From Lactococcus allomyrinae (GTDB lineage Bacteria > Bacillota > Bacilli > Lactobacillales > Streptococcaceae), in contig NZ_CP032627.1 in NCBI RefSeq assembly GCF_003627095.1, positions 1,488,001 through 1,552,000 of the forward strand: DNA of 64,000 nucleotides, written 5' to 3'. The stretch's first letter is position 1. Every line of letters begins with the position of its first letter. The position numbers and the translations under genes were made by a program. This document shows, piece by piece, positions 1 to 15,188 of this stretch. Below the pieces are notes generated by a model that made no database searches, was not told the origin of the DNA, and saw only the letters and a list, made by a program, of their open reading frames with translations.

Positions 1-91
1 TCAAGATAGGAATTCTATAACGACGCATTTCTGCTTTAAAATTCTTTATTCGTTCATTAACTTCTGTTTGTTCCATTATAGACCCACTCAT
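1..91 (-). CDS. N-terminal fragment of an unknown small protein (runs off window)
   Basis: Only about 30 codons lie inside the window, beginning M-S-G-S-I-M-E-Q-T-E and rich in charged residues. The ATG at 91 is preceded by AAAGGA with about six bases of spacing, which favours it over the in-frame ATG at 76. It follows the coiled-coil membrane protein by 52 bases on the same strand, so it is probably the next gene of the same operon. No family can be named from so short a piece. Confidence 0.5.
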   Translation of the reverse strand, partial: MSGSIMEQTEVNERIKNFKAEMRRYRIPIL

Positions 92-143
92 AAATATCCT
101 TTCTAACGCACATCTCCTGATCAACCCACCCTTATCAAATTTT

Positions 144-1148
144 CTACTTCACTGAGTAGGACAACATTTCTTCATAAACGTTTTGAGCAATTTCTTTTGC
201 TTGCTCAAGCCGAGCCAGCGCTTCAAACTTATTTTTCTCCGCAAAGTCTAGAGTATTCTCAATTTTCTTCTTTTCTTCTGATAAACGTTCAATTTTTTCA
301 GCGATAGTGACGTGATTTTTCCTATATTCCCTTAGTTCTGCCCTCTTTTGAACCTCCATTTGCTCAAGTTGTTTTATTCTCACCTTCCATTTTTTCATTC
401 CTTCACTAAGATTAGTATTTTCAGCTTGCAGGTAGACCAGTTCTTTTTGGAGTCCCGGTTGACTATTACTGCATTTTTCTTGAAGAAGCGCTTTTTTCTG
501 TAATAACTTCACATTATTATCTTTTAATCGTCCATTTCCATCTTTTAGCTGACCAAGAAACGCTTTTTGATGGGCAAGCTCCTTCTTTGCTTGATTTAAA
601 GCCAAGTGCAAGGAAGAGGTCATTTTTTGATAGTCTTCCAGTGTCGCCCTTGCTTCAACCTTTAGCTTACTTCCATTCTGTCTACTAAAAACAAGTAGGA
701 CTAAAAAAACAAAAAGGACAATAACAAAATCAAAAACGAAAATAAAATCTCCAACATGAAGTATTGTGAAAAAATTGTGCTGTACCTCACTTACTCTACT
801 CGCAGTCGCAATCTTTCTTGGAAAAAAGATAAAGTGTGTCTGAAGCCGATAATACATTAACCCCATAAAAAGCAAGGCACTTCCAATCAAGCTAACACCC
901 GTGGAAATACAATAGTAAAGCCATTGTTTACGGATAAATGAAGCAAATCCCATCAATATTGCAGTAAATAATGCAGGAGTTAAAATTGTTAGCACAAAGC
1001 CTTGCAGTACATAGTCTAAGTAAAAAATACTTTTTATTTCCAGATAGATATAAATGACTTTCAAAAAGAGAGCAACAATCAATAGCCAGTAAAATAAGCC
1101 TCTAGATTTTAGAACATTCTTATTTTCCCTCAATACCTCACTCCTCAT
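144..1148 (-). CDS. Membrane-anchored coiled-coil protein, unknown function
   Basis: The 334-residue product has four hydrophobic segments in its first half (about residues 19-36, 42-66, 73-100 and 130-155). A long charged heptad-like region follows (about 165-325) that should form a cytoplasmic coiled coil. No enzyme motif is visible. The annotated ATG at 1148 has a poorly spaced ribosome site; a TTG at 1133 with AGGAG seven bases upstream is an alternative start. It lies 28 bases after the soluble coiled-coil gene and belongs to the actin-like/coiled-coil operon, where it is a good candidate for the membrane anchor. That role is inferred from topology and context only. Confidence 0.75.
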   Translation of the reverse strand: MRSEVLRENKNVLKSRGLFYWLLIVALFLKVIYIYLEIKSIFYLDYVLQGFVLTILTPALFTAILMGFASFIRKQWLYYCISTGVSLIGSALLFMGLMYYRLQTHFIFFPRKIATASRVSEVQHNFFTILHVGDFIFVFDFVIVLFVFLVLLVFSRQNGSKLKVEARATLEDYQKMTSSLHLALNQAKKELAHQKAFLGQLKDGNGRLKDNNVKLLQKKALLQEKCSNSQPGLQKELVYLQAENTNLSEGMKKWKVRIKQLEQMEVQKRAELREYRKNHVTIAEKIERLSEEKKKIENTLDFAEKNKFEALARLEQAKEIAQNVYEEMLSYSVK

Positions 1149-1176
1149 CTATTTATTCTTTTACTCCTTCGTATGC

Positions 1177-1824
1177 TTAGGGCGTTTTTCTCACTGCCTT
1201 CACTCTTTTTGCATTACGAAACAAATCCGCAATCAGTGCTTTCTCTTCCAGCACTGATTCTGTAAGACGATAATATTCTTTCTCAATTTGGGCTTTTTCT
1301 CTTATAAGTTGCTCTAAAAATTGCTCTTGTTTTTTTCTATCCTGTTTTAATTTTTGGATTTCTTGATCAAGCTCTGATACCACTGTCGTTTTTACTCTTG
1401 TTTCTTCTTTTACCTTTTTGAAATTATCGACTAACACTTCTTTTTCTTCTGATAGTTGTTTAAGCTTGATCTCCGTCTCTTGCTTATTTTTAGCAAAATT
1501 TTGAGTATTTACAGCGATTTTCGACTCTAATCCTTTATTCGTTGCCTTCAAAAGAGCATTCTCTTTCTCAATTTTATCCAGCACCCTAGTATTAGCGATT
1601 ACTGCCTCTGTTGAAAGCAGGTATTCTTTTTCAAGTTGCGCCAAGTTCTCTTGCAAAGTAGTATAATCATCGTTCTTCCTAGCAAGTTGTTGAGCAAAAA
1701 CTTTATTAAAGTTTAAAGTAACCTTTTTTACTTCCATTAATAAGCTTGCTCGCTCGGCTTCAATCCTTGCAGGCATGGGTACACCCAAGCTATCCTTTGA
1801 TTCCTCAACTAATTTATCATCCAT
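1177..1824 (-). CDS. Soluble coiled-coil protein, unknown function
   Basis: The 215-residue protein is almost entirely Lys/Glu/Gln-rich heptad sequence from about residue 20 to 200, with a short basic tail (R-V-K-A-V-R-K-T-P). No signal peptide, membrane segment or catalytic motif is visible. It starts five bases after the stop of the actin-like gene, so the two are probably translationally coupled. A structural partner or adaptor of the actin-like filament is a reasonable guess from position and composition, but nothing in the sequence proves it. Confidence 0.75.
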   Translation of the reverse strand: MDDKLVEESKDSLGVPMPARIEAERASLLMEVKKVTLNFNKVFAQQLARKNDDYTTLQENLAQLEKEYLLSTEAVIANTRVLDKIEKENALLKATNKGLESKIAVNTQNFAKNKQETEIKLKQLSEEKEVLVDNFKKVKEETRVKTTVVSELDQEIQKLKQDRKKQEQFLEQLIREKAQIEKEYYRLTESVLEEKALIADLFRNAKRVKAVRKTP

Positions 1825-1829
1825 AGCAA

Positions 1830-3052
1830 CTAGATCTCTTGTTCAATTTCTTCTCTTAAGCGATTTAACTTCGTTTGTACTTGTTTTAATTGCTCAGAAT
1901 AGACTGGGTGATGAGTTTCTTCAGTAGTATTAGATACGCTAGAAATTGTTCTCACTTCTTCCACTTTTTCTGGTTCTCGAACCTCTCTTGAACCATTCCA
2001 AATGAGAAAAGCATATTTATAAAACCCTCGAACATTCGCTAACTCAGAAGCTTCAATAAAAATCAAACGATTAAAGTATTCTTGACCAATCTCATCCAGT
2101 AGAGCAGTTTTATCCACAATATTTGCCCCTCCTCCAGTCATAATAATGAAGTCAACGTCCTCAATATCAGGGAAATTCTCTGTTACCAAAGGGGCGACAG
2201 TAAATCGGGTATAATCCTCTATTGATCTTTTTACAATATAGGAGATGTCTTTTGAATCAGCGACATTACGATTTGGGCGATAAATATAAGTTCCACTCGT
2301 ACTTCCCTCACGAAGGAGTTTCTCAATCGTAAACAGCTTCGTTGAATTAATTTTTCCAGCAATTATTTTAATCAATGTCTGAATTCCCTCGAAGCGCTCA
2401 GCACCCATTGGTGCTGGATTTAAGCGATTTGATGTATTAATCAGTATGGTTCCGCCACCTATATCTAAAACACCCATACGTCCATTAGCGTAGGTATCTA
2501 CAGGATGCATTCCTTCATCATAAGCCAATTCAAACGCAGTTCCCATGTATTGAGGAATAACCAAGATGTAGTCCTCAGAAGGAATTTCAATGATTAGCTC
2601 CTCCCCATCGACCCGAATATAGTGTCGTCCAATCATCAGCTCTTTCAAAATTTGGACGGTCTTGCTTTCTTCATGCAAATCTGTGATTGGTACACCCAAT
2701 ACGAGACGAACAACAAGAGGTTTAGTACGTGCTTCTTTGTAATCTAAAGCTAAACGTCCCAAAGCAAATTCTAAAATACGTTGTGTTTTTTTCTGTTCAA
2801 TCCGACCCGAACGAGCATAAGTATCAATCATTTTTTCAGAGAGATGGTAGGCCTCTAACTCTGTTCCCCAAACAAATCGGTTTTCTCCTGCTTTATCTAT
2901 AGAATAAACCTGATTTCCTTTTAGTTTCCAACCCCCAGTACACCTTGGGTGACATTTTCTGCTGTCAAATAAGAGGCAGGGTAGACATATTCCCCTCGAT
3001 CACTTTTCATTTTAATTCGTTTGTTTCCTAAATCAATGGCAAAAATATTCAT
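1830..3052 (-). CDS. ParM/StbA-like actin-family ATPase, frameshifted in this sequence
   Basis: Read in two frames this is a 407-residue actin-fold protein. The N-terminus M-N-I-F-A-I-D-L-G-N is the phosphate-1 loop. V-L-D-I-G-G-G-T (about residue 220) is phosphate 2 and M-T-G-G-G-A-N (about residue 305) is the adenosine motif, the set found in ParM/Alp filament proteins. The last 25 residues look like a short coiled coil. The reading frame breaks in a run of five G at 2932-2936 (minus sense); one extra G restores an unbroken frame. The ATG at 3052 has AAAGGAG seven bases upstream. In isolation it would suggest plasmid-type segregation, but there is no ParR-like gene or plasmid feature. It sits instead among coiled-coil genes behind a WxL cluster. 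Confidence 0.8.
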
Positions 3053-3117
3053 CCTTTTTCTCCTTTAGTTCTGAGTGGCTTTCAAAGACTCAAAACTCCT
3101 TCATCTGATACAAATTT

Positions 3118-3933
3118 TTATAAATGGCTGACACTTCTCAAGAGAAGATCAATGGTTTGAGCTGCCTCATTAATTTGAGTCGAATAATACTCTATCCGCT
3201 CTTTTAATTGATTAAGTTTCAATCTGGATTGCGCTTCCTGAGTAGCAGCCTCCTCTTCTGCCTTACTAATTATCTGCGAGGCTTCCGTCTTTGCTTCCTC
3301 TAGAATCTTATCCGCTTCATTTTGAGTCTTTTGCGTGATTTTTTCCCATTCTTCAAGCTGCTTATTGTTCTGTAATTCCTGCTTATTTTTTTCTTGAGCT
3401 ATTAATTCACGTTCGCTTTCTAGCAAAGCCGTCTTGTAAGCAAAGTGTTCTTGAAGTTCTAATAAAACGTCCGCAACTTCTGATTTAATCTCTAGTTTTT
3501 CTCTTGTTAACCGCATCATCTCAGCGTCCTTTTCTGCAACTTTCTCATCGAAAGTCTTAGAAAGATTGACTTGCTCATCTTTTTCTGCAAGAACTTTTGT
3601 TTCAAGAGTTTCTATTTGCTTCTTTTTACTTGTTAGTTCATGCTCTAGAGATGCAACTTGCTGCTTATATTTTAGAAGATGCTCATTTAAAACTTTTTCA
3701 GACTGCGCATTTTTTTGAGAGCGCATCGATTTATTATCTTGCAATTTCACTTGCTTTAATGTTTCATATTGAACCTTAATATCTTCTTTTTCTTGTTCAA
3801 CTATTTTTATTTTTTGTTTTAAGGATGTTACCTGTTGAGCAATTTCAGAAATTTGTTGAGCAGTAACTGATGTTCCTCCCTCTGAAGCTTTAGCTCCTGT
3901 CTTTCTTTGAAAAAAACCTTTTTTCTCCACCAT
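3118..3933 (-). CDS. Coiled-coil protein, unknown function
   Basis: About 271 residues, nearly all predicted coiled coil. The C-terminal half (A-D-K-I-L-E-E-A-K-T-E-A repeats) resembles DivIVA-like or ATPase-stalk helices. I chose the ATG at 3933 because AGAGGAG lies just upstream; the frame stays open to a TTG at 3975, but that start would fall inside a hairpin and has no ribosome site. It lies between the DUF916 gene and the actin-like gene, 66 bases from the latter. No specific function can be assigned. A cytoplasmic scaffold that works with the actin-like protein is an inference from gene order. Confidence 0.75.
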   Translation of the reverse strand: MVEKKGFFQRKTGAKASEGGTSVTAQQISEIAQQVTSLKQKIKIVEQEKEDIKVQYETLKQVKLQDNKSMRSQKNAQSEKVLNEHLLKYKQQVASLEHELTSKKKQIETLETKVLAEKDEQVNLSKTFDEKVAEKDAEMMRLTREKLEIKSEVADVLLELQEHFAYKTALLESERELIAQEKNKQELQNNKQLEEWEKITQKTQNEADKILEEAKTEASQIISKAEEEAATQEAQSRLKLNQLKERIEYYSTQINEAAQTIDLLLRSVSHL

Positions 3934-3973
3934 TCTCTCCTCTGATATCCATCGTTTCAACCCTAATAAACTC

Positions 3974-3994
3974 AAGACTGTTTTCCACAGTCTT
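3974..3994. other. Intergenic hairpin between DUF916 gene and coiled-coil gene
   Basis: AAGACTGT and ACAGTCTT form a perfect 8-bp stem with a five-base loop. A T-run follows it only on the plus strand, so for the minus-strand operon it is not a classical terminator. It may instead set relative expression across the WxL/cytoskeletal junction. Confidence 0.5.
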
Positions 3995-4013
3995 GGTTTT
4001 TCAGGTTAGTTCA

Positions 4014-5195
4014 TTACTCATCTTTTTCAGAAACTTCTTTGCTCTCTTCATTCAATTGCGCTTTAATCGTTTCAAGTTGAGCTTGAAGTGCTTCTTTTTC
4101 GGAGGGCTGTTCTTCCTCGTCTTCCTCATCTTTACGGCGTTTCCACAAGAGGAAGAAGAGGAAAAGCAGGGCCAAAAGAATCAGGATTATTCCCATCCAA
4201 ATCAACCAGTTTTTATACCAAGCTTCTGGTTTAACCGTGACATCCTTAGCATTTAATTTTCTTGCCGTCTCTCCAGAAATTGTAAAGTCTCGCGTAAATT
4301 GCCAGCGATAATCAAATTTCTGCGCTTTACCTGCCGCATCTTTAGATGAATACTTTCCATTTGCATCTTTTTGGCCATAGACCGTCATTGTTAAACGATA
4401 CTTCCCTGCCTCAAGACGCTTTCCTTCACCAATCGCAATAGGATAATCAAAATTAGTATTAGGCGCCATTTGCATCATTTCTTTATTTGCAGTATAGGAC
4501 AAACTCGTATTACTTAAGCCCTTAATCGTTGCTTGCGCATACATTTGATTAAGGTATCCTGCATTTGGATTTTGTAGATTAGCATTGATGACATTTCTAT
4601 AATTCACTTGGCCTGGGGCCACAGCGTTCATTTTTAAATCTGGTGCAACCACTGTTTTATCTTGTTGCATCAAAAGTGCAACGACATACGCATATTTATT
4701 TTGAATACTCAACCCTTTAGATTTGGAAGCTGTTGTGCCAGAATCTTTTTCTTTAAATGTAATCCCACCTGCGATAACCCCTTTAAAAGTTTCATCAGGC
4801 ATCTTAACATTAATTTTTACCTGTTGTGATGATTTAGGAGTAAGGGTAATTTCTTTAGGCATCGTCGCATAGTCTGCAAGATTATACTTTAAAGTGCGAT
4901 CTGGCTTAATCTTATTCGGAGAATATTCGATGACGCCATTAATATTCGTTGTCGCACTTGCGATTGCTTCTTCAACAATTACCGTTTTCTCTGTTGAGTT
5001 TTTGAGCGTAACCGTTAAAGTCTGAGATTGACCAGGGTTCATTTCTAAATTGAAATACCCACTTTGACCGATTTGATTTTCTGGGAGAACGGGGTTCACC
5101 GAGAAGTTAAACTCATTGGCATAAGCCACTTTACTCATTGCTCCAAGCGTAAAGATTGTCGCAATTAATAACAAAATTTTTCTATATTTTTTCAT
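4014..5195 (-). CDS. WxL-binding surface protein, DUF916 + DUF3324 (CscA-like)
   Basis: The 393-residue product has a signal peptide (about 1-26, ending A-Y-A-N), then an extracellular DUF916/DUF3324-type beta-sandwich region (about 30-325). One membrane helix follows (about 330-350), and then a roughly 40-residue acidic cytoplasmic tail with coiled-coil character. This layout is that of the membrane protein found in every WxL (Csc) cluster, where the ectodomain is thought to bind WxL proteins and peptidoglycan. The ATG has GAGGG six bases upstream. It is the last WxL-type gene before the coiled-coil/actin genes; its cytoplasmic tail gives a physical way to connect the two groups. Confidence 0.9.
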   Translation of the reverse strand: MKKYRKILLLIATIFTLGAMSKVAYANEFNFSVNPVLPENQIGQSGYFNLEMNPGQSQTLTVTLKNSTEKTVIVEEAIASATTNINGVIEYSPNKIKPDRTLKYNLADYATMPKEITLTPKSSQQVKINVKMPDETFKGVIAGGITFKEKDSGTTASKSKGLSIQNKYAYVVALLMQQDKTVVAPDLKMNAVAPGQVNYRNVINANLQNPNAGYLNQMYAQATIKGLSNTSLSYTANKEMMQMAPNTNFDYPIAIGEGKRLEAGKYRLTMTVYGQKDANGKYSSKDAAGKAQKFDYRWQFTRDFTISGETARKLNAKDVTVKPEAWYKNWLIWMGIILILLALLFLFFLLWKRRKDEEDEEEQPSEKEALQAQLETIKAQLNEESKEVSEKDE

Positions 5196-5273
5196 TATTC
5201 CCTCTTTCTAAAAATGAAGTGATCATTCTATTAGTAAATCGTTGTCTTACTATAAATATAAAATAAGTCCGTT

Positions 5274-5305
5274 GTTCTAAATGGAAAGCAATTTCCATTT
5301 AGAAC
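5274..5305. other. Perfect 14-bp inverted repeat between WxL and DUF916 genes
   Basis: GTTCTAAATGGAAA and its exact complement are separated by the four-base loop GCAA. There is no T-run after the stem in the minus-strand sense, so a processing site, a stabilising hairpin or a protein-binding site is more likely than a terminator. Confidence 0.6.
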
Positions 5306-5332: not shown

Positions 5333-8300
5333 TTAATTGGTTGGTACATCATTGAGAGACCAAGTCAATTGTCCTTCGTAAGTTCCTTTTTCTTGACTCT
5401 GCACAGGGATATTCAGTTGAATCCCTTGTCCAGTGCCCGAATTCCAATTTTGATTCAAATTGAATGTCCCTGTTGTTGGTGCTGTATTTGCGTAAATTTG
5501 CATAGCAGCACTTGTAATTTGTTGACTTCCTGTTCCATCCTTGAAGATAAGATAGGGAGCAAGATTATTTCCGTTTGTGACGCCTTGCAAATCTTGGGTT
5601 TGCGCAACGGTAACGGCCCAAGGTTTAAGCCCTGTTCCTGTACGAGTATCCGTGACTGTCACATCACTTGAAGGACTTTGTGCCCAAGCAACCAAAGGTT
5701 TGGGACTAACATTTAATGTTCCAAAGTCATACATCGTAGGAGTGGTTAAACTAATTGATCCAAAGCTTAAATTAATCGTGATTTCTTTTGATACCCCATT
5801 GTAGGTATAAGTTACAGGATCGATATTCCCATTTTCATCAATGATTGGATGATCAGCCGTAATGGTTTGTAAAGTGCCGACTAAATCTACTGGAGTAGAA
5901 ATCGTTGGATCTTCTATTGTCCCATCTGCTTTGAAGCCCAAGGCATAAGTCCAATTTCCATCTAAATCCGCTTGATTTTTAAGCGCATGTGCATCATCCC
6001 CTGTCATACTTGTATCATAAGCATTCACAGCAGTCTGATGATCTGAGGAAATAACCGCAGCTTGTGGAACAACAACAATATTACTTTTAGCCGTACTACT
6101 TCCCAGTGTCCAAGTCATTGGAACTTCTGCATAAGATTGACCTTGCGCATTTGTCTCTGAGGAAGTAGGATCTTGAATACTTGTACCTGCAGTGTTAATG
6201 CTCGATAAAGTCCCAGCACTCACAGTAATATCAGACATTACTCCGACCCCTTTCAAACCAACTATTTGTTGGAGTTGAGCCTGAGTCAATGAAGAAGCAT
6301 TTGTCTCTGAACTTGTATTGGGTAGGATATAATTTCCTGCACTCAACGAAGTTGTATTATCTGTGACCACATTTTGAATAATATAACTTCCAAAAGTGGT
6401 TGGGTCATTTGAGCCATCTTGTTGGTTGCCTACGAAGTAGTCTTTGGTTGCAAAACTCCGCGTAGCCCCTGTTGTCCCCGCACTAACGTCAAAACTAGGG
6501 TTTGTTTGTGGGTAGTTGTTCAAAACTCGTCCGTCAAATCCTGATGCTGTTCTAGATTTAATATAATATGGAGACTGACTTGTGAACGTAAAGGGATTAG
6601 TTGTACTATCACTATATCCCATGACATACATTACTTTCATAGAGCTAGCATTTGTATCAGCTGCAACTGAAGCCCAAGCCTGCATGGCTTGCCCCGCAAC
6701 AGGTGTACCTGTTGTAATATTTGATTTCAGATGATGTTGCCAGTAACCGGAACCTGCATCTCCTGTCATATTATATACACGAATTTGCCCAGGAACCACA
6801 TAGCCAATCCATGTGGGATTGCTAGGTGATGAGAGTGAATTTATTGTATAATCCCCTAGAAAAGCGTAATTCCTTGTTATGTCAACACCTGAGAAGTTAT
6901 CAGGTGTAATATTCGCTGCACCAGATTTTGTGGAGGCATCTCCACCATTGAAAGTTAACACAGGAAATCCTGATTGTTGTCCCCAATAAGCTCCACCATA
7001 ACTATTGCTAATGTTTGTAGGAGGGGTACCTGTCGGATTCCAGAACAAATTCCCATTATTAGTTGACATATCCAAGTCTGAAAGGTTAATTAATCCCGAT
7101 GTTTGAACATAAGGGGTAGAGAGTGTAGCATTTGGATAAACAATGAGTTTACTACCAGATACAACAGATGATGTGGAAGTAATTCCAAGCGTGGAATTAC
7201 TATCCATTTGAATCGTTCCGTGCTTCGCATATGTCGCCGCATGGGTCGCAGCTGTAGCTCCACCCCCGTTTTTAAACGAACCTGCTACATTAACTGTAGC
7301 TTGTGAGGTAAGTTCTGCACTATTGAAATTAATCAATGAACCATTAATTGTGATTGGATTGTGAGAAGTGTTATTTCCTAGAGTGACTATTGAGGTATTA
7401 GTATTGGCCGATGCAATAGCATCTGTCAAATTATCACTACTTCCACCTGAAGAGACCGTTCCTGAGATAGTTGTTCCATCTCCGACTTCAATATTGGTAT
7501 TATAGAGCTGACCAGATGAGGGCATCGCAACGTAATTTGTTGCATAGAGAGAACCTACTGTGTTTCCGTCTGCATTAATATTCATATTGATGGTTCCAAT
7601 ATTAGTATATGTGCTGCTTGAACCATTAGATTGACCATCACCATAAATGACAGCTCCATTCAAAACATTACCAGAAGAAGAATTTGCAGAGATATTAACA
7701 GTGATACTATTATTTACTCCCGAACCGACATGAGTTGCTGTATTATTGTAGCCGGCGCCTCCTGATAGATAGGTTCCTAAAGGTAATTTAAAAGTTGAAC
7801 CAGTTGCTCCTGTTAAATCCAAATTAAGTACTGTACTACCTAGAATAGATGAGCTTCCATTAAAGAATGGGCCACCACATAGTTGCTTAGTTCCTGTACG
7901 CGGACTGCCTGAGAAGTCACCACCGTAAACATTTACAGTAGAGTCACCTGCAATTGTTTCTGTTCCTGCTTGGCCGTAGTTACCACCAACTATAGCGTTG
8001 ATTGTCCCATTATAAACATTGACCGTTGCATTATTAGTATTATACAAATCGCCCCATGAACCACCTGATAGAAACCAGTTTACTTGCCCCATATTAACTT
8101 GAGCTGTAGTAGATCCCCATCTAGTTGTTCCTGTGTAGCCCCCTCCTTCAAGAGTATCAACAATACCACCGTTCAAAATGTTATAGGAATTACCGACTTG
8201 GCTACCGTTAGATTGTCCACCGTAAGTCCAACGTGAAATATCATTATTATGAATTAAATAACAATCTCCATTTTGTAAAAATGCTTGACGATAGGTCCAA

Positions 8301-10288
8301 ACGGTACCACCCCCGCCCCAAAGGTCCCAACCTGAATTATAGGCAGAAGTGATGTCGGTCTTACCATAGGCTACTGTTCCTTGAGAAGCAAGGGTTGTTT
8401 CTGCTGTTCCCCCCATTGCTGTACAATATACAACGCCTGCTCCTCCAACAGAGTTGTCAGGATTAGACGTTCCTGCTTCAAGAACAGATTGACCTTGAAG
8501 ATATCCGTTAGAACTTGCACCGTAAGAATATCCCGTCCAGTCATTGTTACCTCCACCAGCAGTGGTGGACATAACTCCTGATTGTTCCCATGTATAGATA
8601 TTTCCATAAATGGCATTACTTGTTATTTTCTGAGCATTGGAAATAACTGTACTTGTAGGAATTTGTGCATAGGCTTTTGCATCAGTGACTGTAACAGCAC
8701 TATCTAAACCAGTTTGACTTCCCAAACCCCATTGAGCTGGAGAAATTTTTAATGAATCATGTCCATTCCCACCAACAACACCATATACAGCTCCTGCTGT
8801 ACCTGTAGAAAAGGCTGATTTTATGTAATTTGTAATATTGGCATAAATAAGCCCCTGTGCTGCACTTGTCGTACTGGTAGCCGCACCATATGTATTTGCA
8901 GTTCCAGAATTAGCACCTGTGAAAAGAGCTTGCCCCGTGGTAAACGCTGAGGTGTCGTAGCTATTGGAAATGACATTTCCTGCACCTAATGTTCCGATAT
9001 TACCTTGGAAAGAGCCACCGTTATAATCAGAAAAAGGGGAGGTACCATTAATATTACTTGAAGTGCTTGTCCAACCTCCAGCACCAGTTAGTGTATTATA
9101 AATAGAACCCGAGATATTACCATAGCAAGCACCACCTTGATAGAGTTGATAGCGTGCATTAGTGCTTGTTGATTTAACATAGGTTGTAACGGTTCCATTT
9201 ACTTTTACTGGTGAAGCAGACGTTCCAATACCCCCTCCGTAAATATTTGTTACTTGAGCAGCAATTGCACCATTGATATCCAAGTTAGTATTTCCAGAGA
9301 TTGTTGCTCCAGCCGCACTCCCCCCTGTTACATTAGTGAGGGTTGACGATGCCTGAGTAATCGTAACATGAGTATCTCCAGAGATTGTTCCACCAGATGA
9401 ATTACCGCCATAGATGTTCCATCCTGCCGTCCCACCTGTCGCTCCAATATAAACATTCGTACTCCCCGAAAGGTTTGTATTATCTGTCCCTCCATAAATA
9501 TTTGGAGCACCAGTAATCCAAGAACCATTCGTTGTCGCAAAAGCATTCCCTTGAGCATAAATATTATCACCGCTAGCAGCGACAGTCACATTACGGAATA
9601 TCGTAGGTACTCCAAAATAAACATTGTTCGGTAGGGTTACGGTGTAATTTGTCCCCGATGCTTGAGAAGTATTGGAACTGGTCAAAGCATCTGCTGGGTT
9701 AGATACCCATGTTAAGCTTTTAGCATGACCAACAAGTGTACTAAACGTCATACTGGTTGCACTTGGTGCAGAAACAGGAGCTTTGACTAATGAATTATTT
9801 AAAGTTGTATTACTGCCAAAATAAAGTACAAAATCTGAAGTACTCGCATTAGAGGCGCTATACATCATGTATAATGCTTGTTGAACACCTGCATCCGTTG
9901 CGGGAAAACTACCGAGAACTGTACCGTTCTGAACAGCAGTAACCTGATTTGCTGGTAAAGTTAATCCACCTATACTTTGTTGCCATCCAAAACTATTGGG
10001 AGCAATTGCATCACTAACTGTGTTTTGAGGAAGGGGGGTACGACTAGGTTGTGAAACTGATTTACCATTAAAAGTACTACTAGTGGGAACAACGCTTTTA
10101 AGCATGGTACTCATACTAGTATTAGACGTTGTCGCTCCTACTTCTTGAGGTGATAACATCTTCCCAAGAGATGTTGGCGTAACACGTCCGCTACTAAAAG
10201 CTTGAGGAATCGCCCCCAGGTTCATAGATGGGACCAATGCTAGCAACATTGCAAAAGTCACAAGTTTAAATTTGTTTTTTCTTTGCAT
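5333..10288 (-). CDS. Very large WxL surface protein with repetitive beta-rich body
   Basis: The 1651-residue protein has a signal peptide (about 1-30), then about 1350 residues rich in Gly, Ser, Thr and Asn. In that stretch motifs such as N-V-Y-G-G and N-I-Y-G-G recur every 20-40 residues, the pattern of a right-handed parallel beta-helix. The C-terminal 200 residues form a WxL domain: the first motif is P-W-A-V (V instead of L) and the second is L-T-W-S-L-N-D-V-P near the end. WxL domains bind peptidoglycan non-covalently. The start has AAGGGAG five bases upstream. It is probably the large ligand-binding or adhesive member of the complex; the ligand is unknown. Confidence 0.88.
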   Translation of the reverse strand: MQRKNKFKLVTFAMLLALVPSMNLGAIPQAFSSGRVTPTSLGKMLSPQEVGATTSNTSMSTMLKSVVPTSSTFNGKSVSQPSRTPLPQNTVSDAIAPNSFGWQQSIGGLTLPANQVTAVQNGTVLGSFPATDAGVQQALYMMYSASNASTSDFVLYFGSNTTLNNSLVKAPVSAPSATSMTFSTLVGHAKSLTWVSNPADALTSSNTSQASGTNYTVTLPNNVYFGVPTIFRNVTVAASGDNIYAQGNAFATTNGSWITGAPNIYGGTDNTNLSGSTNVYIGATGGTAGWNIYGGNSSGGTISGDTHVTITQASSTLTNVTGGSAAGATISGNTNLDINGAIAAQVTNIYGGGIGTSASPVKVNGTVTTYVKSTSTNARYQLYQGGACYGNISGSIYNTLTGAGGWTSTSSNINGTSPFSDYNGGSFQGNIGTLGAGNVISNSYDTSAFTTGQALFTGANSGTANTYGAATSTTSAAQGLIYANITNYIKSAFSTGTAGAVYGVVGGNGHDSLKISPAQWGLGSQTGLDSAVTVTDAKAYAQIPTSTVISNAQKITSNAIYGNIYTWEQSGVMSTTAGGGNNDWTGYSYGASSNGYLQGQSVLEAGTSNPDNSVGGAGVVYCTAMGGTAETTLASQGTVAYGKTDITSAYNSGWDLWGGGGTVWTYRQAFLQNGDCYLIHNNDISRWTYGGQSNGSQVGNSYNILNGGIVDTLEGGGYTGTTRWGSTTAQVNMGQVNWFLSGGSWGDLYNTNNATVNVYNGTINAIVGGNYGQAGTETIAGDSTVNVYGGDFSGSPRTGTKQLCGGPFFNGSSSILGSTVLNLDLTGATGSTFKLPLGTYLSGGAGYNNTATHVGSGVNNSITVNISANSSSGNVLNGAVIYGDGQSNGSSSTYTNIGTINMNINADGNTVGSLYATNYVAMPSSGQLYNTNIEVGDGTTISGTVSSGGSSDNLTDAIASANTNTSIVTLGNNTSHNPITINGSLINFNSAELTSQATVNVAGSFKNGGGATAATHAATYAKHGTIQMDSNSTLGITSTSSVVSGSKLIVYPNATLSTPYVQTSGLINLSDLDMSTNNGNLFWNPTGTPPTNISNSYGGAYWGQQSGFPVLTFNGGDASTKSGAANITPDNFSGVDITRNYAFLGDYTINSLSSPSNPTWIGYVVPGQIRVYNMTGDAGSGYWQHHLKSNITTGTPVAGQAMQAWASVAADTNASSMKVMYVMGYSDSTTNPFTFTSQSPYYIKSRTASGFDGRVLNNYPQTNPSFDVSAGTTGATRSFATKDYFVGNQQDGSNDPTTFGSYIIQNVVTDNTTSLSAGNYILPNTSSETNASSLTQAQLQQIVGLKGVGVMSDITVSAGTLSSINTAGTSIQDPTSSETNAQGQSYAEVPMTWTLGSSTAKSNIVVVPQAAVISSDHQTAVNAYDTSMTGDDAHALKNQADLDGNWTYALGFKADGTIEDPTISTPVDLVGTLQTITADHPIIDENGNIDPVTYTYNGVSKEITINLSFGSISLTTPTMYDFGTLNVSPKPLVAWAQSPSSDVTVTDTRTGTGLKPWAVTVAQTQDLQGVTNGNNLAPYLIFKDGTGSQQITSAAMQIYANTAPTTGTFNLNQNWNSGTGQGIQLNIPVQSQEKGTYEGQLTWSLNDVPTN

Positions 10289-10335: not shown

Positions 10336-11091
10336 TTAGTTAGCAGGTGTGTCATCAAGGGTCCATGTAAGGTCTGCTGTATATTGAGCTGCACCAGCTA
10401 CACCCGCTGGAACTGCGAGTGTTACGGCTGTATCTTTGGTTGCACCATCTTTGCCACCAAAGTCAAGCAAGCTGTTACCTGAACCATGTCCTGCTGTTGC
10501 TCCAAGGATTGTTCCCGATTGAACACCTGGTGTCAATACTGTTGATGCTGCTGAAATATCGGCTGGATTTGCTGTACCAGCACCTTGAATTTCTGCATCT
10601 CCAAGTGTAATTGTTGCACCAGTAAGTGTTCCATGACCATTAGCAACAAGCCCTGCATCTGAAGTAGTGAAGTCAGTCATTTGTACTTTTAAGTTCCATC
10701 CAGAGAATGTTCCACGGTTATCCGCAACTTGAACATAGTTTGTACGTGTGGTACCATCGTCCAATTTTTGTGCTGCTGCATTATAAACTTCTGCTTTATT
10801 GCTGACTGGATGACTACCAAAATCAAAGCTTGATGCATAAACAATCGTCAAACCGCTATCTGGCATTGTTGGACCTCCAGGGTTAACACCATCTGGTTCT
10901 GTAGGAGTGACGGGAGTAGTTGGATCTTGTGGGTCAACTGGTCCTGTTGTGTCGGTACCAGGTGTGAATGTAACTTCACCTTGTGAATTGTATACTTGTG
11001 TTGTTGCAGCACTAGCAATTTGTGGCGCAATGGAAGCGGCCAAAAGTCCAAGTGTGGCTAATGAAATATATTTTACTGCTGATTTAGACAT
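10336..11091 (-). CDS. WxL domain surface protein (paralogue 1)
   Basis: The 251-residue protein has a signal peptide ending A-S-A-A, a Pro/Asp/Thr-rich linker (about 45-80) and a WxL domain with G-W-N-L-K-V and the terminal Y-x3-L-T-W-T-L-D-D-T-P signature. The family anchors to peptidoglycan through this domain. It is one of four similar adjacent genes and lies 48 bases upstream of the giant WxL gene. The tandem copies share the N-terminal Y-N/D-S-Q/N-G pattern, which points to local duplication followed by divergence. Confidence 0.9.
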   Translation of the reverse strand: MSKSAVKYISLATLGLLAASIAPQIASAATTQVYNSQGEVTFTPGTDTTGPVDPQDPTTPVTPTEPDGVNPGGPTMPDSGLTIVYASSFDFGSHPVSNKAEVYNAAAQKLDDGTTRTNYVQVADNRGTFSGWNLKVQMTDFTTSDAGLVANGHGTLTGATITLGDAEIQGAGTANPADISAASTVLTPGVQSGTILGATAGHGSGNSLLDFGGKDGATKDTAVTLAVPAGVAGAAQYTADLTWTLDDTPAN

Positions 11092-11148
11092 GAAATTGTC
11101 CTGCCTTTCTGAGATATAAATAAGTTTTTATCGCTTACTCCTCTTGTA

Positions 11149-11907
11149 TTAAGTTGGAGTATTCGTTGGTAAATCAGATAATATCCAATTTAGTGTTGTG
11201 GTATAAGCTGCTGCATCTTTTGGTGTCGTACCAGGTACAAATAGTGTTACATCTGGGGTGAGACCATCCTTCGTAATACTAGTTTGACTTCCCCAACGAA
11301 TCACCCAAGTCCCTGCACCTTCACCAGATGTAGCAAGTGCGACTTGCGTTTCTACACCTGGAATTAAGCTGAGTACTTCTTGAGCTTTGGGAGCAGATGC
11401 TCCATTTGTAGATGCTGGAACTGGGTTTTTCAAAGAAATCGCAGAGCCGTTAAGCACTTTATATTTCTGGGGACCTGTACCAACTTGCGTAAATTGAGAA
11501 GTTTCTACAACTTTTAAAGCCCAACCCGAAAATGTGCCACGTCTGTCTGTTACTTGGACGTAATTGGGCGTTAAAGTCTCTGAATTAAAATACTTTTGAG
11601 CTTTCGCAAGATAGGTTTCATCTTCATTTGAGATATCGTGAGTTCCAAAATCAAAGCTTGATGCAAAATCGATTGTAAGTGGGCCATCTCCGCCAGGAGT
11701 AGGTTTTGAACCGTCTGGATTCTGTGGATCTACAGGAAGGGTAGGATCAGGTGTATTAGGATCTACAGGGGGTTGAACACCACTTCCTGTACTAAATCCA
11801 ACAATTCCCTGTGAATCGTAGGTCTGTGTCGTGGCGGCGTAAGCTTTATGGGCTAAACCCAATGAAATCAGGATGAGAGGCACGCTTAACAATGTTATTT
11901 TTTTCAC
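11149..11907 (-). CDS. WxL domain surface protein (paralogue 2)
   Basis: The 252-residue secreted protein has a signal peptide ending A-Y-A-A, a P-V-D-P-type proline-rich linker and a WxL domain (G-W-A-L-K-V; L-N-W-I-L-S-D-L-P). The start is GTG with AAAGGAGGG four bases upstream. It shares the domain plan of its three neighbours and is presumably displayed in the same complex. Individual ligand or partner specificity cannot be seen. Confidence 0.9.
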   Translation of the reverse strand: MKKITLLSVPLILISLGLAHKAYAATTQTYDSQGIVGFSTGSGVQPPVDPNTPDPTLPVDPQNPDGSKPTPGGDGPLTIDFASSFDFGTHDISNEDETYLAKAQKYFNSETLTPNYVQVTDRRGTFSGWALKVVETSQFTQVGTGPQKYKVLNGSAISLKNPVPASTNGASAPKAQEVLSLIPGVETQVALATSGEGAGTWVIRWGSQTSITKDGLTPDVTLFVPGTTPKDAAAYTTTLNWILSDLPTNTPT

Positions 11908-11947
11908 AGTACCCTCCTTTTCATGTTATTGAGGTTAAGCAAATGAC

Positions 11948-12739
11948 TTAGTTCCCTGGAGCATTCGTTAATGACCAATTAAGTTGAGTCGTGTAAGCTG
12001 TCGCTTTATTGGTCCCTGCAATAACTTTAAGAGTAATTGGTGATGCTGTTGATACTGCATCATTATCAAGATGAGGGCCTCCGTTTTCTTGGTAGTCTGC
12101 GTTGCCGCCAAGACCGTAAACCCAAGTCCCCATTCCTTGATTAGTGCCTGCACCTAAAATCTTAGTTGCTGCTGTCCCTACTGTAAAACTATCAGTATTA
12201 ACATAACCTGGTGTTGCTGCTGTGGTCCCCTCCGTATAGCCTTTGCTGAAAGATAGCTCTGCTCCAGTCAACTGATCTCCATCTGAATTTTGAAATTGGT
12301 CACTTTCGGCAACAGTTAAAGTCCAACCATCCCATGTTCCGCGTGTATCTGTGACTTGGACATAGTTAGGACGAGTGATATCAACGTCATTTCCATCCTT
12401 ATCTTTGCTAATCCATTGAGCATGTGCATAATAAGTGGCATCATTAGATGAGATCTTCTGTGTACCAAAGCTCAAACTTGACGCAAAGTCAATAGAAAGC
12501 GCGCCACCTGTCCCTGGTGCTGGGTCTGTACCATCTGGGTTCGTTGGTCCTACTGGAACTGTTGGATTTAATGGGTCAACTGGGCTAATCCCTGTATTAT
12601 CCCCTTCTTCAAAGTTAACGTAACCATTAGACGTGTAGTCTCCACCTGTACTTGCAGCACTTACAGTACCAGCAATCATAGGTCCTACTACAAGGCATGT
12701 TGTCAATACTGATGCTGATTTCAGTAACATTTTATTCAT
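11948..12739 (-). CDS. WxL domain surface protein (paralogue 3)
   Basis: The 263-residue protein has a signal peptide, a proline-rich linker containing P-V-D-P-L-N-P, and a WxL domain with G-W-T-L-T-V and Y-T-T-Q-L-N-W-S-L-T-N-A-P. AAGGAG lies eight bases before the ATG. The gene is spaced 40 bases from paralogue 2 and 45 from paralogue 4, as in a single transcription unit. Confidence 0.9.
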   Translation of the reverse strand: MNKMLLKSASVLTTCLVVGPMIAGTVSAASTGGDYTSNGYVNFEEGDNTGISPVDPLNPTVPVGPTNPDGTDPAPGTGGALSIDFASSLSFGTQKISSNDATYYAHAQWISKDKDGNDVDITRPNYVQVTDTRGTWDGWTLTVAESDQFQNSDGDQLTGAELSFSKGYTEGTTAATPGYVNTDSFTVGTAATKILGAGTNQGMGTWVYGLGGNADYQENGGPHLDNDAVSTASPITLKVIAGTNKATAYTTQLNWSLTNAPGN

Positions 12740-12784
12740 GAGTTGTCTCCTTTTAAATAATCCTATTTTTAATCTGATATGATT

Positions 12785-13627
12785 TTATTGACTGACTGCA
12801 GATGTGTTACCTGACCAATCATTGCCTGGTACTGCTTGGAGACTCCAATATAAATCTGTCGTATAAGCTGCTGCTTTTTCTACCAAACCTGATGGAACGG
12901 TTAAACTAATTGCTGATTTTGTCGCAACTTTGGATTGGTCTGAGGTGTTTGCAGTATCTACTGATGCTGCATCATACGCATCTACATCACCAAAGTTGTA
13001 AAGCCAAGTTCCTGCTCCTTCATTTTCAGCTGCTGAAACAAGTTTAGTCGCTACACCTGGTGTGAGTGAACCTGAGGTCACAACATCACTTGGTGTACCT
13101 GAGGTAATTCCGTTCCCACCTACAATTGTTCCACCAGTGAAGTTAATTTGTGCTCCAGTAAGTGCATAACCTGCATCTGAAGAACTACCAGAGCTCAAGT
13201 GAAGATCTGAGGCTTGGGTCAAGGTCAACGTCCAGCCTGCCAGATCTCCTGATTGGTCAGTTACTTGCGCGTAGTTGGGTACGATTTTAGTCGCATCATC
13301 TTTATCTACTACCATGTCAGGGTGAGCATAATAAGTTTGTGCTTGTGTAGAGATTGATTGTGTACCGAAGTAAAGTGTTGAACCATAGTCAACTGTCAAG
13401 TTCCCTGGTGCTCCTGGGGTGCCTGGATCCACGGGAGTGACGGGATTCGTTGGATCAGTGGGGTCAAGGGGGTCTACTGGCCCTGTACCTGCTTGCAAAG
13501 TAAGGTTGGCACTAGAAGTATAGTCACCACCAGTAGTCGTTGCTGCACCTGCGGTAGAAATAAGCACTGGTCCTGCAATTAAAACTGTTGCTAATAGTGC
13601 TGAAGATTTTAATACTAATTTGTTCAT
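12785..13627 (-). CDS. WxL domain surface protein (paralogue 4)
   Basis: The 280-residue protein has a signal peptide ending A-G-A-A, a linker of D-P-T-D-P-T-N-P type and a WxL domain (G-W-T-L-T-L; L-Y-W-S-L-Q-A-V-P). Unlike its neighbours it continues about a dozen residues beyond the terminal proline. The start has AAGGAG upstream. It is the first WxL gene after the small LPXTG protein. Confidence 0.9.
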   Translation of the reverse strand: MNKLVLKSSALLATVLIAGPVLISTAGAATTTGGDYTSSANLTLQAGTGPVDPLDPTDPTNPVTPVDPGTPGAPGNLTVDYGSTLYFGTQSISTQAQTYYAHPDMVVDKDDATKIVPNYAQVTDQSGDLAGWTLTLTQASDLHLSSGSSSDAGYALTGAQINFTGGTIVGGNGITSGTPSDVVTSGSLTPGVATKLVSAAENEGAGTWLYNFGDVDAYDAASVDTANTSDQSKVATKSAISLTVPSGLVEKAAAYTTDLYWSLQAVPGNDWSGNTSAVSQ

Positions 13628-13712
13628 TAACTGTTTCTCCTTAAATGTTAATCCATTAGAAATAAATTATTTTTCAAATGGTGAGTAATAAAACTTTGGC
13701 TTTAGTATTTTC

Positions 13713-14024
13713 CTATATGGCTTCCCTCCTTTTATGCTTTTTATAAACTGTAATGAGGAATAAAAGAATCATTCCTGCAAAACTTGTTATAACTGAAGAA
13801 TTTGTTGCATCTCCCGTTTTGGGAAGAATACTTTGCTCCTTAGGAAGAGTTGGTTTAGATTCCGCAGGAGCAACATTCTCACCACTTGAGGACGGGGGCG
13901 TTGTCCAAACACCTGTAAACCCTACACGGCCTTGCGTGTTATACTTTGTTTCGGCTGCGTGAGCATAAACTGTAGGCATCATTAAAAGCAACAGAAGCAA
14001 TGCAAATAAATGTTTTTTGTTCAT
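13713..14024 (-). CDS. Small LPXTG protein of the WxL cluster (CscD-like)
   Basis: The 103-residue product has a signal peptide (about 1-23), the same short Y-N-T-Q-G-R-V-G-F motif seen at the N-terminus of the WxL proteins, a Ser/Pro linker, L-P-K-T-G at about residue 67, a hydrophobic helix and a basic tail (K-K-H-K-R-R). This is a sortase substrate. WxL clusters usually carry one small LPXTG gene. It is the first gene of the cluster; the ATG has AGGAG upstream. No sortase gene is present in the window. Confidence 0.88.
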   Translation of the reverse strand: MNKKHLFALLLLLLMMPTVYAHAAETKYNTQGRVGFTGVWTTPPSSSGENVAPAESKPTLPKEQSILPKTGDATNSSVITSFAGMILLFLITVYKKHKRREAI

Positions 14025-14177
14025 TCTTTCTCCTAATTTTTCTCTAGATTGAGAAAGCGATACTCTGTTTTTCTAGGCAAGTGATATCACCTATGTTAAA
14101 CAACTAATTTTTAAAGTTTCATCCCTCCTTTTTTAAAAACACCTTCCTAGTATGAGCATAATGTTCTAGAAGTACTA

Positions 14178-14205
14178 TTTCAGAAAAATCATAATTTTTC
14201 TGAAA
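14178..14205 (+). repeat. 28-bp palindromic repeat, copy A
   Basis: The stem TTTCAGAAAAAT pairs with ATTTTTCTGAAA around the loop CATA. Copy B at 14457 is its exact reverse complement. The half ATTTTTCTGAAATTT differs at two places from the CodY consensus AATTTTCWGAAAATT, so a CodY or similar operator is possible. Confidence 0.7.
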
Positions 14206-14456
14206 TTTAGTTTTTCATAGTATAATATAGTGAATGAATATCTCTATTAAATAGATAATTATTTTTAAATTTTTAATCCAATTCGATTCTATGTTGTACT
14301 GAGATTACCTAAAACGGAAGTTGTTATATAAAATAATCTTCACGAAAGGGTTGAAAAGATTACGATATTTTTATATAATATTCTTGTAACTAATTAATGC
14401 TTTTCTATTTTATTGCATAATATCTAGTTGTTTTTATACTCGCTTTCAAACTTTTC

Positions 14457-14484
14457 TTTCAGAAAAATTATGATTTTTCTGAAA
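14457..14484 (-). repeat. 28-bp palindromic repeat, copy B
   Basis: Same 12-bp stem as copy A but with loop TATG, i.e. the exact reverse complement of copy A, 279 bases away. Two identical palindromes bracketing an AT-rich segment suggest paired operators that could loop. Confidence 0.7.
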
Positions 14485-14791
14485 CTAACATTATCGCTGA
14501 CCCCTGTGGTTAAGCCTTTTTTATTTTTATTACTCTAAAAAAATAATTAGTTAAAATGTTCTGATTCAAACAAAACGTTTATTACAAAATCTTTTTACTT
14601 ACTACTTTTTAGCTCCAAATCCCTTATGATTACGTTAAGAAAAAAGTCTACTTCTTCATTTAAGAGATTTTATCTTAAAATTTGGCTCTTTTTTTAAATT
14701 TTTAATGCAATAGCTACTCTTATTCCTATTAAAAAATTAAATTTTTTGTAACATTAGATATAATTAATTCGTTATAAGTGTTTATTAAAAT

Positions 14792-14816
14792 AAAAAAAGC
14801 GTAAAATCTACGCTTT
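14792..14816 (-). terminator. Rho-independent terminator of the 60-residue gene
   Basis: In minus sense AAAGCGTA pairs with TACGCTTT around a five-base loop and is followed by TTTTTTT. It lies about 35 bases after the small ORF stop. Confidence 0.8.
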
Positions 14817-14831
14817 CGATGTATTACCTTT

Positions 14832-14847
14832 CTGTCAGTACTGACAG
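14832..14847. repeat. CTGTCAG palindrome (16-bp form)
   Basis: Exact CTGTCAGTACTGACAG between the small gene and its terminator. It is the first copy in the window of a palindrome family that recurs about twenty times between here and 55.8 kb, with half-sites to 63.3 kb. Confidence 0.85.
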
Positions 14848-14852
14848 ATTTT

Positions 14853-15035
14853 TTATTTATTTCCCTTCATTGTTCGATTGAAACGATGATGTGAACGACC
14901 ATAGCGGCTAATCCTCCGATGAGGTTTATGAGTTGGAACTCCATTTTCCTCAAAATCTTCAAACTGCTCATCTTCTTCTCTACCACTCAGAACTTCATGA
15001 AGTTTAAGTAATTCTTCGCGTTGTTTCTCTAGCAT
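14853..15035 (-). CDS. Small highly charged hypothetical protein
   Basis: A 60-residue ORF with an acidic middle (E-E-D-E-Q-F-E-D-F-E-E) and a basic, histidine-rich end (H-R-R-I-S-R-Y-G-R-S-H-H-R). The ATG is preceded by GGGGGTG with about six bases of spacing, and a good terminator follows. These make it a plausible real gene despite its length. No family is recognised. Confidence 0.5.
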   Translation of the reverse strand: MLEKQREELLKLHEVLSGREEDEQFEDFEENGVPTHKPHRRISRYGRSHHRFNRTMKGNK

Positions 15036-15148
15036 TTTTTCACCCCCACTTATAAAAATAACTTTCTCTATAAGTCCTTTCTTCTTTCTAATCTTAATAT
15101 AATTATCTCATTTTTATCTTATTCACCAAAACAATACACAACTGACAA

Positions 15149-15188
15149 AAAAGGTTACTGACAGAAAAACTATCAGTAACCTTTTTCT
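15149..15188 (-). terminator. Terminator overlapping the end of the lipase-like gene
   Basis: AAAAAGGTTACTGA... pairs with ...TCAGTAACCTTTTTT; the TGA stop codon of the upstream gene lies in the ascending stem. One arm carries CTGTCAG of the palindrome family. Confidence 0.85.

What the first reader, a model, noticed from the sequence alone, without database searches (positions are those of the whole stretch)
1..5195. Actin-like protein and three coiled-coil proteins joined to a WxL surface cluster: candidate trans-envelope system
Seen: a ParM-like ATPase (1830-3052) lies in one same-strand run with three coiled-coil proteins, one of them with four membrane helices, directly behind a DUF916/DUF3324 protein and six WxL/LPXTG genes. 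Gaps are 5 to 140 bases. There is no ParR, centromere-like repeat or plasmid gene. Known: WxL clusters normally encode only surface proteins; ParM-type actins normally segregate plasmids. Inference: a cytoplasmic filament with a coiled-coil scaffold may organise or position the WxL complex through the membrane proteins. I know of no described system with this composition.
Basis: partly seen in the sequence, partly recalled or inferred. Interest (0 to 1): 0.82.

Follow-up and report, generated by a model that had tools for sequence, protein, structure and literature searches.

The report
Actin cassette beside bacterial adhesin genes
In some Lactococcus-like bacteria a small set of genes, one actin-like and others coiled-coil, keeps turning up beside genes for cell-surface proteins rather than with plasmid genes, which hints at a dedicated inner skeleton for surface proteins; the actin gene in this window itself has a broken reading frame.

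Summary
The layout is real: a WxL operon ending in DUF916/DUF3324 is followed by CC1, an Alp7A/ParM-like actin, CC2 and a four-helix membrane coiled-coil protein. Correction: the actin is not one open frame; it breaks near 2933. Relatives form one actin clade (support 100/99) with C-terminal extensions of 65-128 aa, no ParR and no iterons. At five of five sites with visible context a surface-protein gene lies within 2.6 kb: two related WxL operons and three MucBP/KxYKxGKxW-type loci; a sixth site (a MAG) is cut by its contig end. CC1 was found only in genomes with this actin, plus one remnant. The cassette is separable: the same genome holds a near-identical WxL operon without it, and 74 of 78 DUF916 domains in two genera have no such actin beside them. 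So 'joined to WxL' is too narrow. The actin is strongly constrained (dN/dS 0.05-0.08) yet broken in three lineages and reduced to remnants at three sites. Best reading, inferred: a membrane-tethered actin scaffold that positions export or anchoring of neighbouring surface proteins. Nothing functional was tested; a ParM-derived leftover and a general shape cytoskeleton remain rivals.

The parts
144..1148 (-). 4TM-CC: 334 aa, four predicted membrane helices, then two long helices (coiled-coil hairpin) hinged at an invariant CxNSQP stretch
   Evidence: hydropathy of the G011 orthologue; alignment of 3; AlphaFold2 mean pLDDT 63.8; full-length relatives in own, G011, G048, G058, fragments in G054 and G025
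1177..1824 (-). CC2: 215 aa coiled-coil-like protein with an invariant IADLF stretch near the C-terminus
   Evidence: (alignment of 3)
1830..3052 (-). Alp7A/ParM-like actin gene, frame broken near 2933: open pieces 2921-3052 (43 aa) and 1830-2879 (349 aa); C-terminal extension
3118..3933 (-). CC1: 271 aa coiled-coil protein; among 295 family genomes found in five with the clade actin and as one remnant
3973..3995 (-). hairpin between DUF916 and CC1 (possible attenuator or weak terminator); a similar hairpin folds in G011
4014..5195 (-). DUF916/DUF3324 (WxL-interacting protein) with a C-terminal TM helix and 42-aa tail
5333..10288 (-). 1651-aa large surface protein, WxL-type by C-terminal W-x-L strings; no Pfam hit
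   Evidence: strings flagged on the G011 orthologue
10336..13627 (-). four small WxL-type proteins (10336-11091, 11149-11907, 11948-12739, 12785-13627); first and last hit Pfam WxL, the middle two were not scanned
13713..14024 (-). 103-aa LPXTG protein

Best explanation
A separable cassette (CC1 and actin, at WxL and one other site also CC2 and 4TM-CC) that travels with genes for surface proteins. Proposed working: the actin polymerises with ATP on the inner face of the membrane; its C-terminal extension docks on the coiled-coil partners; 4TM-CC (or another membrane protein of the locus) ties the filament to the membrane; the assembly marks or clusters the sites where the neighbouring surface proteins are exported or anchored. 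Shown here: gene association at several sites and in several species, one actin clade, no ParR, the extension, membrane helices, strong purifying selection, repeated recent loss. Inferred: polymerisation, docking, tethering, effect on surface proteins. In this window the actin copy is broken, so if the system works in this strain it would depend on the intact paralogue at C1:1157321-1158529.
For: At five of five sites with visible context a surface gene lies 961 (window), 976 (L005), 1538 (G005), 2544 (L. chungangensis) and 1189 bases (L. reticulitermitis) from the actin, with CC1 in between at four of them (and coordinates); 7.8% of the own main contig lies within 5 kb of an LPXTG or DUF916 match. 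Three remnants also lie at surface genes, one as a truncated surface protein fused to the CC1 tail; by their flanks they are orthologous to the L. chungangensis and L. reticulitermitis sites, so they are not further independent sites, but at the rpoC site the surface gene differs between species. The actins form one clade, 100/99, apart from plasmid and ICE-type actins (17 rows); that the L. chungangensis actin groups with the WxL-site actins has support 93/90 only. C-terminal tail 65-128 aa in 7 of 7 clade members measured against 13-28 in 8 of 9 others, the ninth not measurable by the motif. CC1 in 6 of 295 Streptococcaceae genomes: five with the clade actin, one remnant. Actin dN/dS 0.045-0.075 (window against G011, three pieces) and 0.066 (L. 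chungangensis against L. reticulitermitis).
Against: No expression, interaction or localisation data. A near-identical WxL operon in the same genome has no cassette and most WxL clusters lack it, so it is not needed for WxL display as such. The actin is broken in three lineages and the cassette is reduced to remnants at three sites. The two WxL sites carry homologous operons (DUF916 77% identical), so the association may have arisen only three or four times. A hairpin before CC1 and a 305-base gap in L. reticulitermitis speak against one simple transcript. CC2 and 4TM-CC gave no match at L005 and L017. The MAG member has no visible surface gene, only its contig end and phage- or element-type genes. 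Heptad scores of the tails are modest (6 to 177 of 2000 shuffles as good). KxYKxGKxW signals pass a cut-off only at L005; at L017 and L029 they are sub-threshold.
Confidence: 0.42

Rival explanations
1. A captured DNA-segregation (ParM) locus: a plasmid- or ICE-type partition actin brought to the chromosome with adhesin genes, still segregating DNA or merely left over.
For: Closest outside relatives are plasmid ParMs, best-ranked 32.8% identity, 165 records, the ParM structure 3js6 and actins in element-like surroundings. The cassette is sporadic, duplicated in G011 and often broken. The MAG member sits among phage- or element-type genes and its contig is also held as a viral contig. NCBIfam and PHROG labels are plasmid partition.
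Against: No ParR-like small gene after the actin; in the four plasmid records read, a gene of 91-105 aa follows ParM (that these are ParR is my reading). No iterons. Clade on its own long branch, C-terminal extension, CC1 co-occurrence, surface genes at five of five visible sites.
Confidence: 0.2
2. A general cell-shape or septum cytoskeleton (MreB-like role) that happens to be inherited with surface islands, without specific cargo.
For: The MreB profile finds in the own genome only frames of 614 and 463 aa, which I read as DnaK and FtsA; weak DivIVA-like match of one CC1 (20.3 bits, cut-off 28); strong constraint on the actin; another actin family, FcmB, acts on cell morphology in a cyanobacterium (PMC12645912, search listing with start of abstract).
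Against: 14 of 18 and 10 of 12 genomes of the two genera have no clade member; repeated loss; surface-gene neighbours.
Confidence: 0.17
3. An element-maintenance or phage-defence cassette that shares island sites with surface genes.
For: Separable, sporadic, often broken cassette with a paralogous double-HTH regulator beside it at the own-genome sites; weak PADLOC hits of the regulator to HTH_VI and CapH models (28.0 and 22.4 bits).
Against: No PADLOC match for the actin or CC1; CC2 and 4TM-CC hits are 12.5-16.2 bits, as coiled coils give by chance. No phage actin match.
Confidence: 0.07

Closest known systems
ParM/Alp7A plasmid segregation actins (ParMRC, Alp7AR)
   Same: Same actin family by profile (Alp7A_like_C, PRK13917 below cut-off, 3js6); DIGGG and TGGG motifs kept in intact members
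   Different: About 33% identity to the best-ranked plasmid match, separate clade, no ParR, no iterons, long C-terminal extension, on chromosomal contigs beside surface genes
Chromosome-encoded ParMs (cParM; PMC12270681, passages read)
   Same: ParM-like actins on chromosomes; the authors suggest roles beyond plasmid segregation
   Different: Those systems were found with a ParR partner; none is seen here. The terms lactococc and coiled do not occur in its main text
WxL gene clusters (PMC10599100, passages read)
   Same: Small and large WxL proteins plus a DUF916/DUF3324 protein
   Different: The authors conclude that all proteins of the cluster are surface proteins; actin, coiled and cytoplasm do not occur in that text
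PilM/PilN/PilO and MamK scaffolds (recalled, from no call)
   Same: Actin-like protein working with membrane or coiled-coil partners to place an assembly
   Different: Different actin subfamilies; analogy of layout only, not tested
FcmB actin family of a filamentous cyanobacterium (PMC12645912, search listing with start of abstract)
   Same: An actin with a role other than DNA segregation; window actin piece has a weak match (25.1 bits, cut-off 300)
   Different: Far below the family cut-off; its genome neighbours were not compared here

Membership tests
ParMRC / Alp7AR plasmid segregation system | Actin of the ParM/Alp family | tested here: met
   Pfam Alp7A_like_C above cut-off; NCBIfam ParM below its cut-off; PHROG 691 partition protein E 1.2e-23 and 2e-22
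ParMRC / Alp7AR plasmid segregation system | ParR-type adaptor gene next to the actin | tested here: not met
   Neighbours are CC1, CC2, a MucBP gene or a signal peptidase gene; no ParR family hit for CC1 or CC2. A ParR without sequence similarity is not excluded
ParMRC / Alp7AR plasmid segregation system | Centromere repeats (parC) | tested here: not met
   Only two- or three-copy imperfect repeats in window 1-5300, two-copy ones in L030:9370-13520 and L029:1-5600
ParMRC / Alp7AR plasmid segregation system | Location on a plasmid or mobile element | tested here: not met
   2.7-Mb contigs in own and G011, 163- and 229-kb contigs in G005 and G058, beside a gene that I read as rpoC in G048; the MAG member (L018) is unclear
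WxL gene cluster | DUF916/DUF3324 plus small and large WxL proteins | tested here: met
   met for the window operon, not for the actin cassette, which also occurs without it
MreB | Cassette actin matches the MreB_Mbl profile | tested here: not met
   The own-genome search at E 0.001 lists only a 614-aa frame (over the cut-off) and a 463-aa frame (under it), neither at a cassette site
Filament-forming actin | Nucleotide-dependent polymerisation | not testable with these tools
   Motifs kept in intact members; AlphaFold2 model too poor to use (mean pLDDT 40.4)

The most novel reading that the evidence does not exclude
A cargo-dedicated actin cytoskeleton for adhesins: a portable cassette of actin, coiled coil and membrane tether that plugs into different surface-protein loci (WxL, MucBP/KxYKxGKxW, LPXTG) and decides where, on a cell without MreB, those proteins are exported or assembled, and that is lost by mutation when surface display no longer pays.
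Probability: 0.33. Interest if true: 0.9.

Novelty: new variant of a known kind. Interest (0 to 1): 0.68.

Why it matters
How Gram-positive cocci place large adhesins at chosen sites of the cell is largely open (my own knowledge). An actin module inherited with the adhesins would be a direct, testable candidate and would add a job to the ParM-like actins beyond moving DNA. The natural pair in one genome (nearly the same WxL operon with and without the cassette) and the intact and broken copies in related species give ready-made comparisons.

Tried and rejected
DUF916 cytoplasmic tail as the specific link to the actin: I fetched 60 stretches, which with the cassette loci cover 72 of the 78 DUF916 places; six were left out (one in G001, four in G062, one in G058). 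phmmer gave 72 hits, some of them fragments; 63 had a measurable tail. Cassette-linked tails are 32-42 aa; 18 others, one of them the copy without cassette in the own genome, have 30-60 aa, many coiled-coil-like by eye. Rejected as specific. The one pair that fits (L030 with cassette 32 aa, L061 without 20 aa) is anecdotal.

Structure: the actin model is unusable (mean pLDDT 40.4), so no fold search was made with it. 4TM-CC model (63.8): Foldseek against PDB gave no match at E 0.001 or better; the top rows are mostly long coiled coils. CC1 against PDB sequences: generic coiled coils, best E 0.0066.

Programmed frameshifting or phase variation as a common reason for the broken frames: rejected, because the lesions of the three lineages lie at different places. 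Assembly error is not excluded for window and G011, but the two frame-breaking indels in 12,124 compared coding bases both fall in the 1.2-kb actin (chance about 0.01), the G011 lesion is in both copies, and the G005 lesion is a stop codon.

4TM-CC matches at E 1e-11 to 1e-5 in 35 other genomes, and second matches of the same sort in G025, G048, G054 and G058, are stretches of about 100-170 residues in frames of about 700-820 aa; I treat them as unrelated membrane-helix matches, without a test.

Literature (open-licence PMC papers only): WxL+actin-like+LPXTG 0 papers; actin-like+ParM+surface protein+LPXTG 0; KxYKxGKxW+actin 12 listed, none on a bacterial actin cassette by title; bacterial actin+sortase+Lactococcus 1 review, listing only. 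Wider searches, listings partly seen: 1 of 1; 20 of 29; 15 of 1165; 12 of 32; 10 of 18; 6 of 6.

Change after checking: confidence lowered from 0.45 to 0.42, the novel case from 0.35 to 0.33 and the ParM rival raised from 0.18 to 0.20, because the two WxL sites are homologous and the remnants lie at orthologous sites, so there are fewer independent events than I first wrote.
Full report
What is there. The window is C1:1488001-1552000 of a 2.76-Mb genome in three contigs. The species of the window itself is unnamed to me. On the minus strand, 5' to 3': a small LPXTG protein, four small WxL-type proteins, a 1651-aa WxL-type protein, DUF916/DUF3324, CC1, actin, CC2, 4TM-CC, then just outside the window a double-HTH regulator and an Spx-like gene.

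Relatives. With the intact paralogue of the same genome as query (L005), 5 of 18 genomes of the own genus match; four hold clade members (own, G005, G011, G014) and the fifth, G010, an actin of 30% identity in element-like surroundings. In the second genus 2 of 12 genomes match. Beyond these two genera no clade member appeared among 295 family, 395 order and 398 class genomes; these sets overlap, are samples, and had different E-value limits. The next best are plasmid ParMs, best-ranked 32.8%, and actins of 27-32% in other families. Phages: no match. One scan of viral contigs found only the MAG contig itself; one scan of named genomes found L. reticulitermitis, L. chungangensis and the MAG.

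Sites. (1) Window operon; the orthologous site in G011 (L020), which holds a second copy elsewhere (L019; 99.7% identical over 7.0 kb). (2) Own paralogue, L005: CC1-like and intact actin between MucBP genes (one with an LPXTG anchor match at its cut-off), next to a gene with a KxYKxGKxW signal above cut-off, and followed by two SdgA/GtfA-like glycosyltransferases and an HTH paralogue; the surface genes there are spread over several frames and may themselves be broken. (3) G005, L017: a 717-aa protein with a sub-threshold KxYKxGKxW signal, Listeria-Bacteroides repeats and an LPKMG sorting-like end (not LPXTG), a signal peptidase I, an actin with a stop codon inside, CC1. (4) L. chungangensis, L029: beside a gene that I read as rpoC, a MucBP_2 protein with a sub-threshold KxYKxGKxW signal, an LPXTG gene, an AraC-type regulator, then CC1-actin-CC2-4TM-CC, all open. 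(5) L. reticulitermitis, L030: WxL operon, DUF916, then the same four genes, all open. (6) The MAG member, L018, is cut by its contig end and lies next to phage- or element-type genes; its surface context cannot be seen. Remnants: G054 has a WxL operon with only a truncated 4TM-CC, at a site with the same flanking genes as site 5, and beside rpoC a truncated surface protein fused to the end of CC1; G025 has an LPXTG lectin-type gene and a 4TM-CC fragment beside rpoC. The rpoC remnants are thus orthologous to site 4, with other surface genes. As a control, six distant actin loci (L021, L022, L031-L034) show no LPXTG-flagged gene in the stretches held; one W-x-L string in L022 is in a gene that I read as non-surface, and one secreted-looking 971-aa protein lies about 0.9 kb from the L033 actin.

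Is it more than chance? 7.8% of the own main contig lies within 5 kb of an LPXTG match over cut-off or a DUF916 domain. Five of five sites would give about 3e-6 under independence; since the WxL operons of sites 1 and 5 are homologous, four events give about 4e-5 (same fraction to the fourth power). The estimate is rough: the density was measured in one genome, includes the sites in question, and the criterion was set after seeing the loci.

The cassette is separable. A second WxL operon in the same genome (L063) is identical over 4762 bases and 99.5% over 2521 more; identity ends seven bases after the DUF916 stop, the next gene 121 bases on is the HTH regulator, and no CC1, actin, CC2 or 4TM-CC is found in the 33 kb fetched. 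DUF916 domains at E 1e-10: 55 in 18 genomes and 23 in 12; three and one stand beside a clade actin, one more beside a remnant.

Anatomy. Seven of seven clade actins measured carry 65-128 residues after the last conserved motif, eight of nine comparison actins 13-28; the ninth lacks the motif. The tail ends fit a heptad, modestly against shuffles (6 to 177 of 2000 as good). 4TM-CC is predicted as four membrane helices and two long helices with a hinge at an invariant stretch. CC1 is a generic coiled coil; one member has a sub-threshold DivIVA match. Tree of 17 rows: clade 100/99; within it, L. chungangensis with the WxL-site actins 93/90, own L005 with G005 90/89, so the switch of surface partner is likely but not firmly supported.

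Selection and loss. Between window and G011 the actin, compared in three separate in-frame pieces, has dN/dS 0.045-0.075, below CC1 (0.18), 4TM-CC (0.30) and CC2 (0.35) and like the surface genes of the operon (0.014-0.112); between the two named species it is 0.066. Yet the window, G011 and G005 actins are broken by different lesions. Constraint followed by recent, repeated loss fits a function that pays only in some settings; this is inference.

Mechanism. I favour a membrane-tethered actin scaffold serving the export or anchoring of neighbouring surface proteins (0.42). Shown: association, clade, composition, constraint, loss. Inferred: polymerisation, docking by the tail, tethering, effect on surface proteins. 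Rivals: captured ParM locus (0.20), general shape cytoskeleton (0.17), maintenance or defence cassette (0.07).

Known or new. The actin belongs to the broad ParM/Alp7A family by profile, but the locus fails the ParR, centromere and plasmid tests for a ParMRC system. I found no paper on such a cassette in the searches listed under Tried and rejected; the library holds open-licence papers only. Papers seen: PMC10599100 and PMC12270681 (passages), PMC11929497 (outline with abstract), PMC12645912 (search listing with start of abstract).

Noticed in passing
L063:8537-18478 (own genome C1:880536-890477): Second WxL operon, 100% identical to the window's over 4762 bases but different in the middle of the large WxL gene, beside genes that I read as dlt: recent duplication or gene conversion.
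   Followed up: partly
L019 and L020 (G011): The cluster including the broken actin is present at two chromosomal sites; the large WxL gene is split into several frames in L020.
   Followed up: partly
L022:9203-10447 (own genome, about C1:189 kb): A third actin (27% identity) in element-like surroundings.
   Followed up: no
L005:4168-7350: Two SdgA/SdgB/GtfA-like glycosyltransferases behind the MucBP/KxYKxGKxW genes and actin: possible adhesin glycosylation.
   Followed up: no
L005:7464-15693: The surface genes at the paralogous site lie in several frames (7464-7823, 7877-9286, 11507-14404, 14371-15693) and may be one or two broken adhesin genes.
   Followed up: no
L004:14570-15124, L005:3611-4120, L063:7884-8423, L064:12684-13001: Paralogous double-HTH regulators at three surface loci and at a fourth, partly seen place of the same genome.
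   Followed up: no
L143:9678-11159 (G054): Truncated surface-protein gene fused in frame to the C-terminal part of CC1 next to rpoC: looks like the scar of a deletion.
   Followed up: yes
L075-L134: Many DUF916 proteins carry charged, partly coiled-coil-like tails of 30-60 aa after the last membrane helix.
   Followed up: partly
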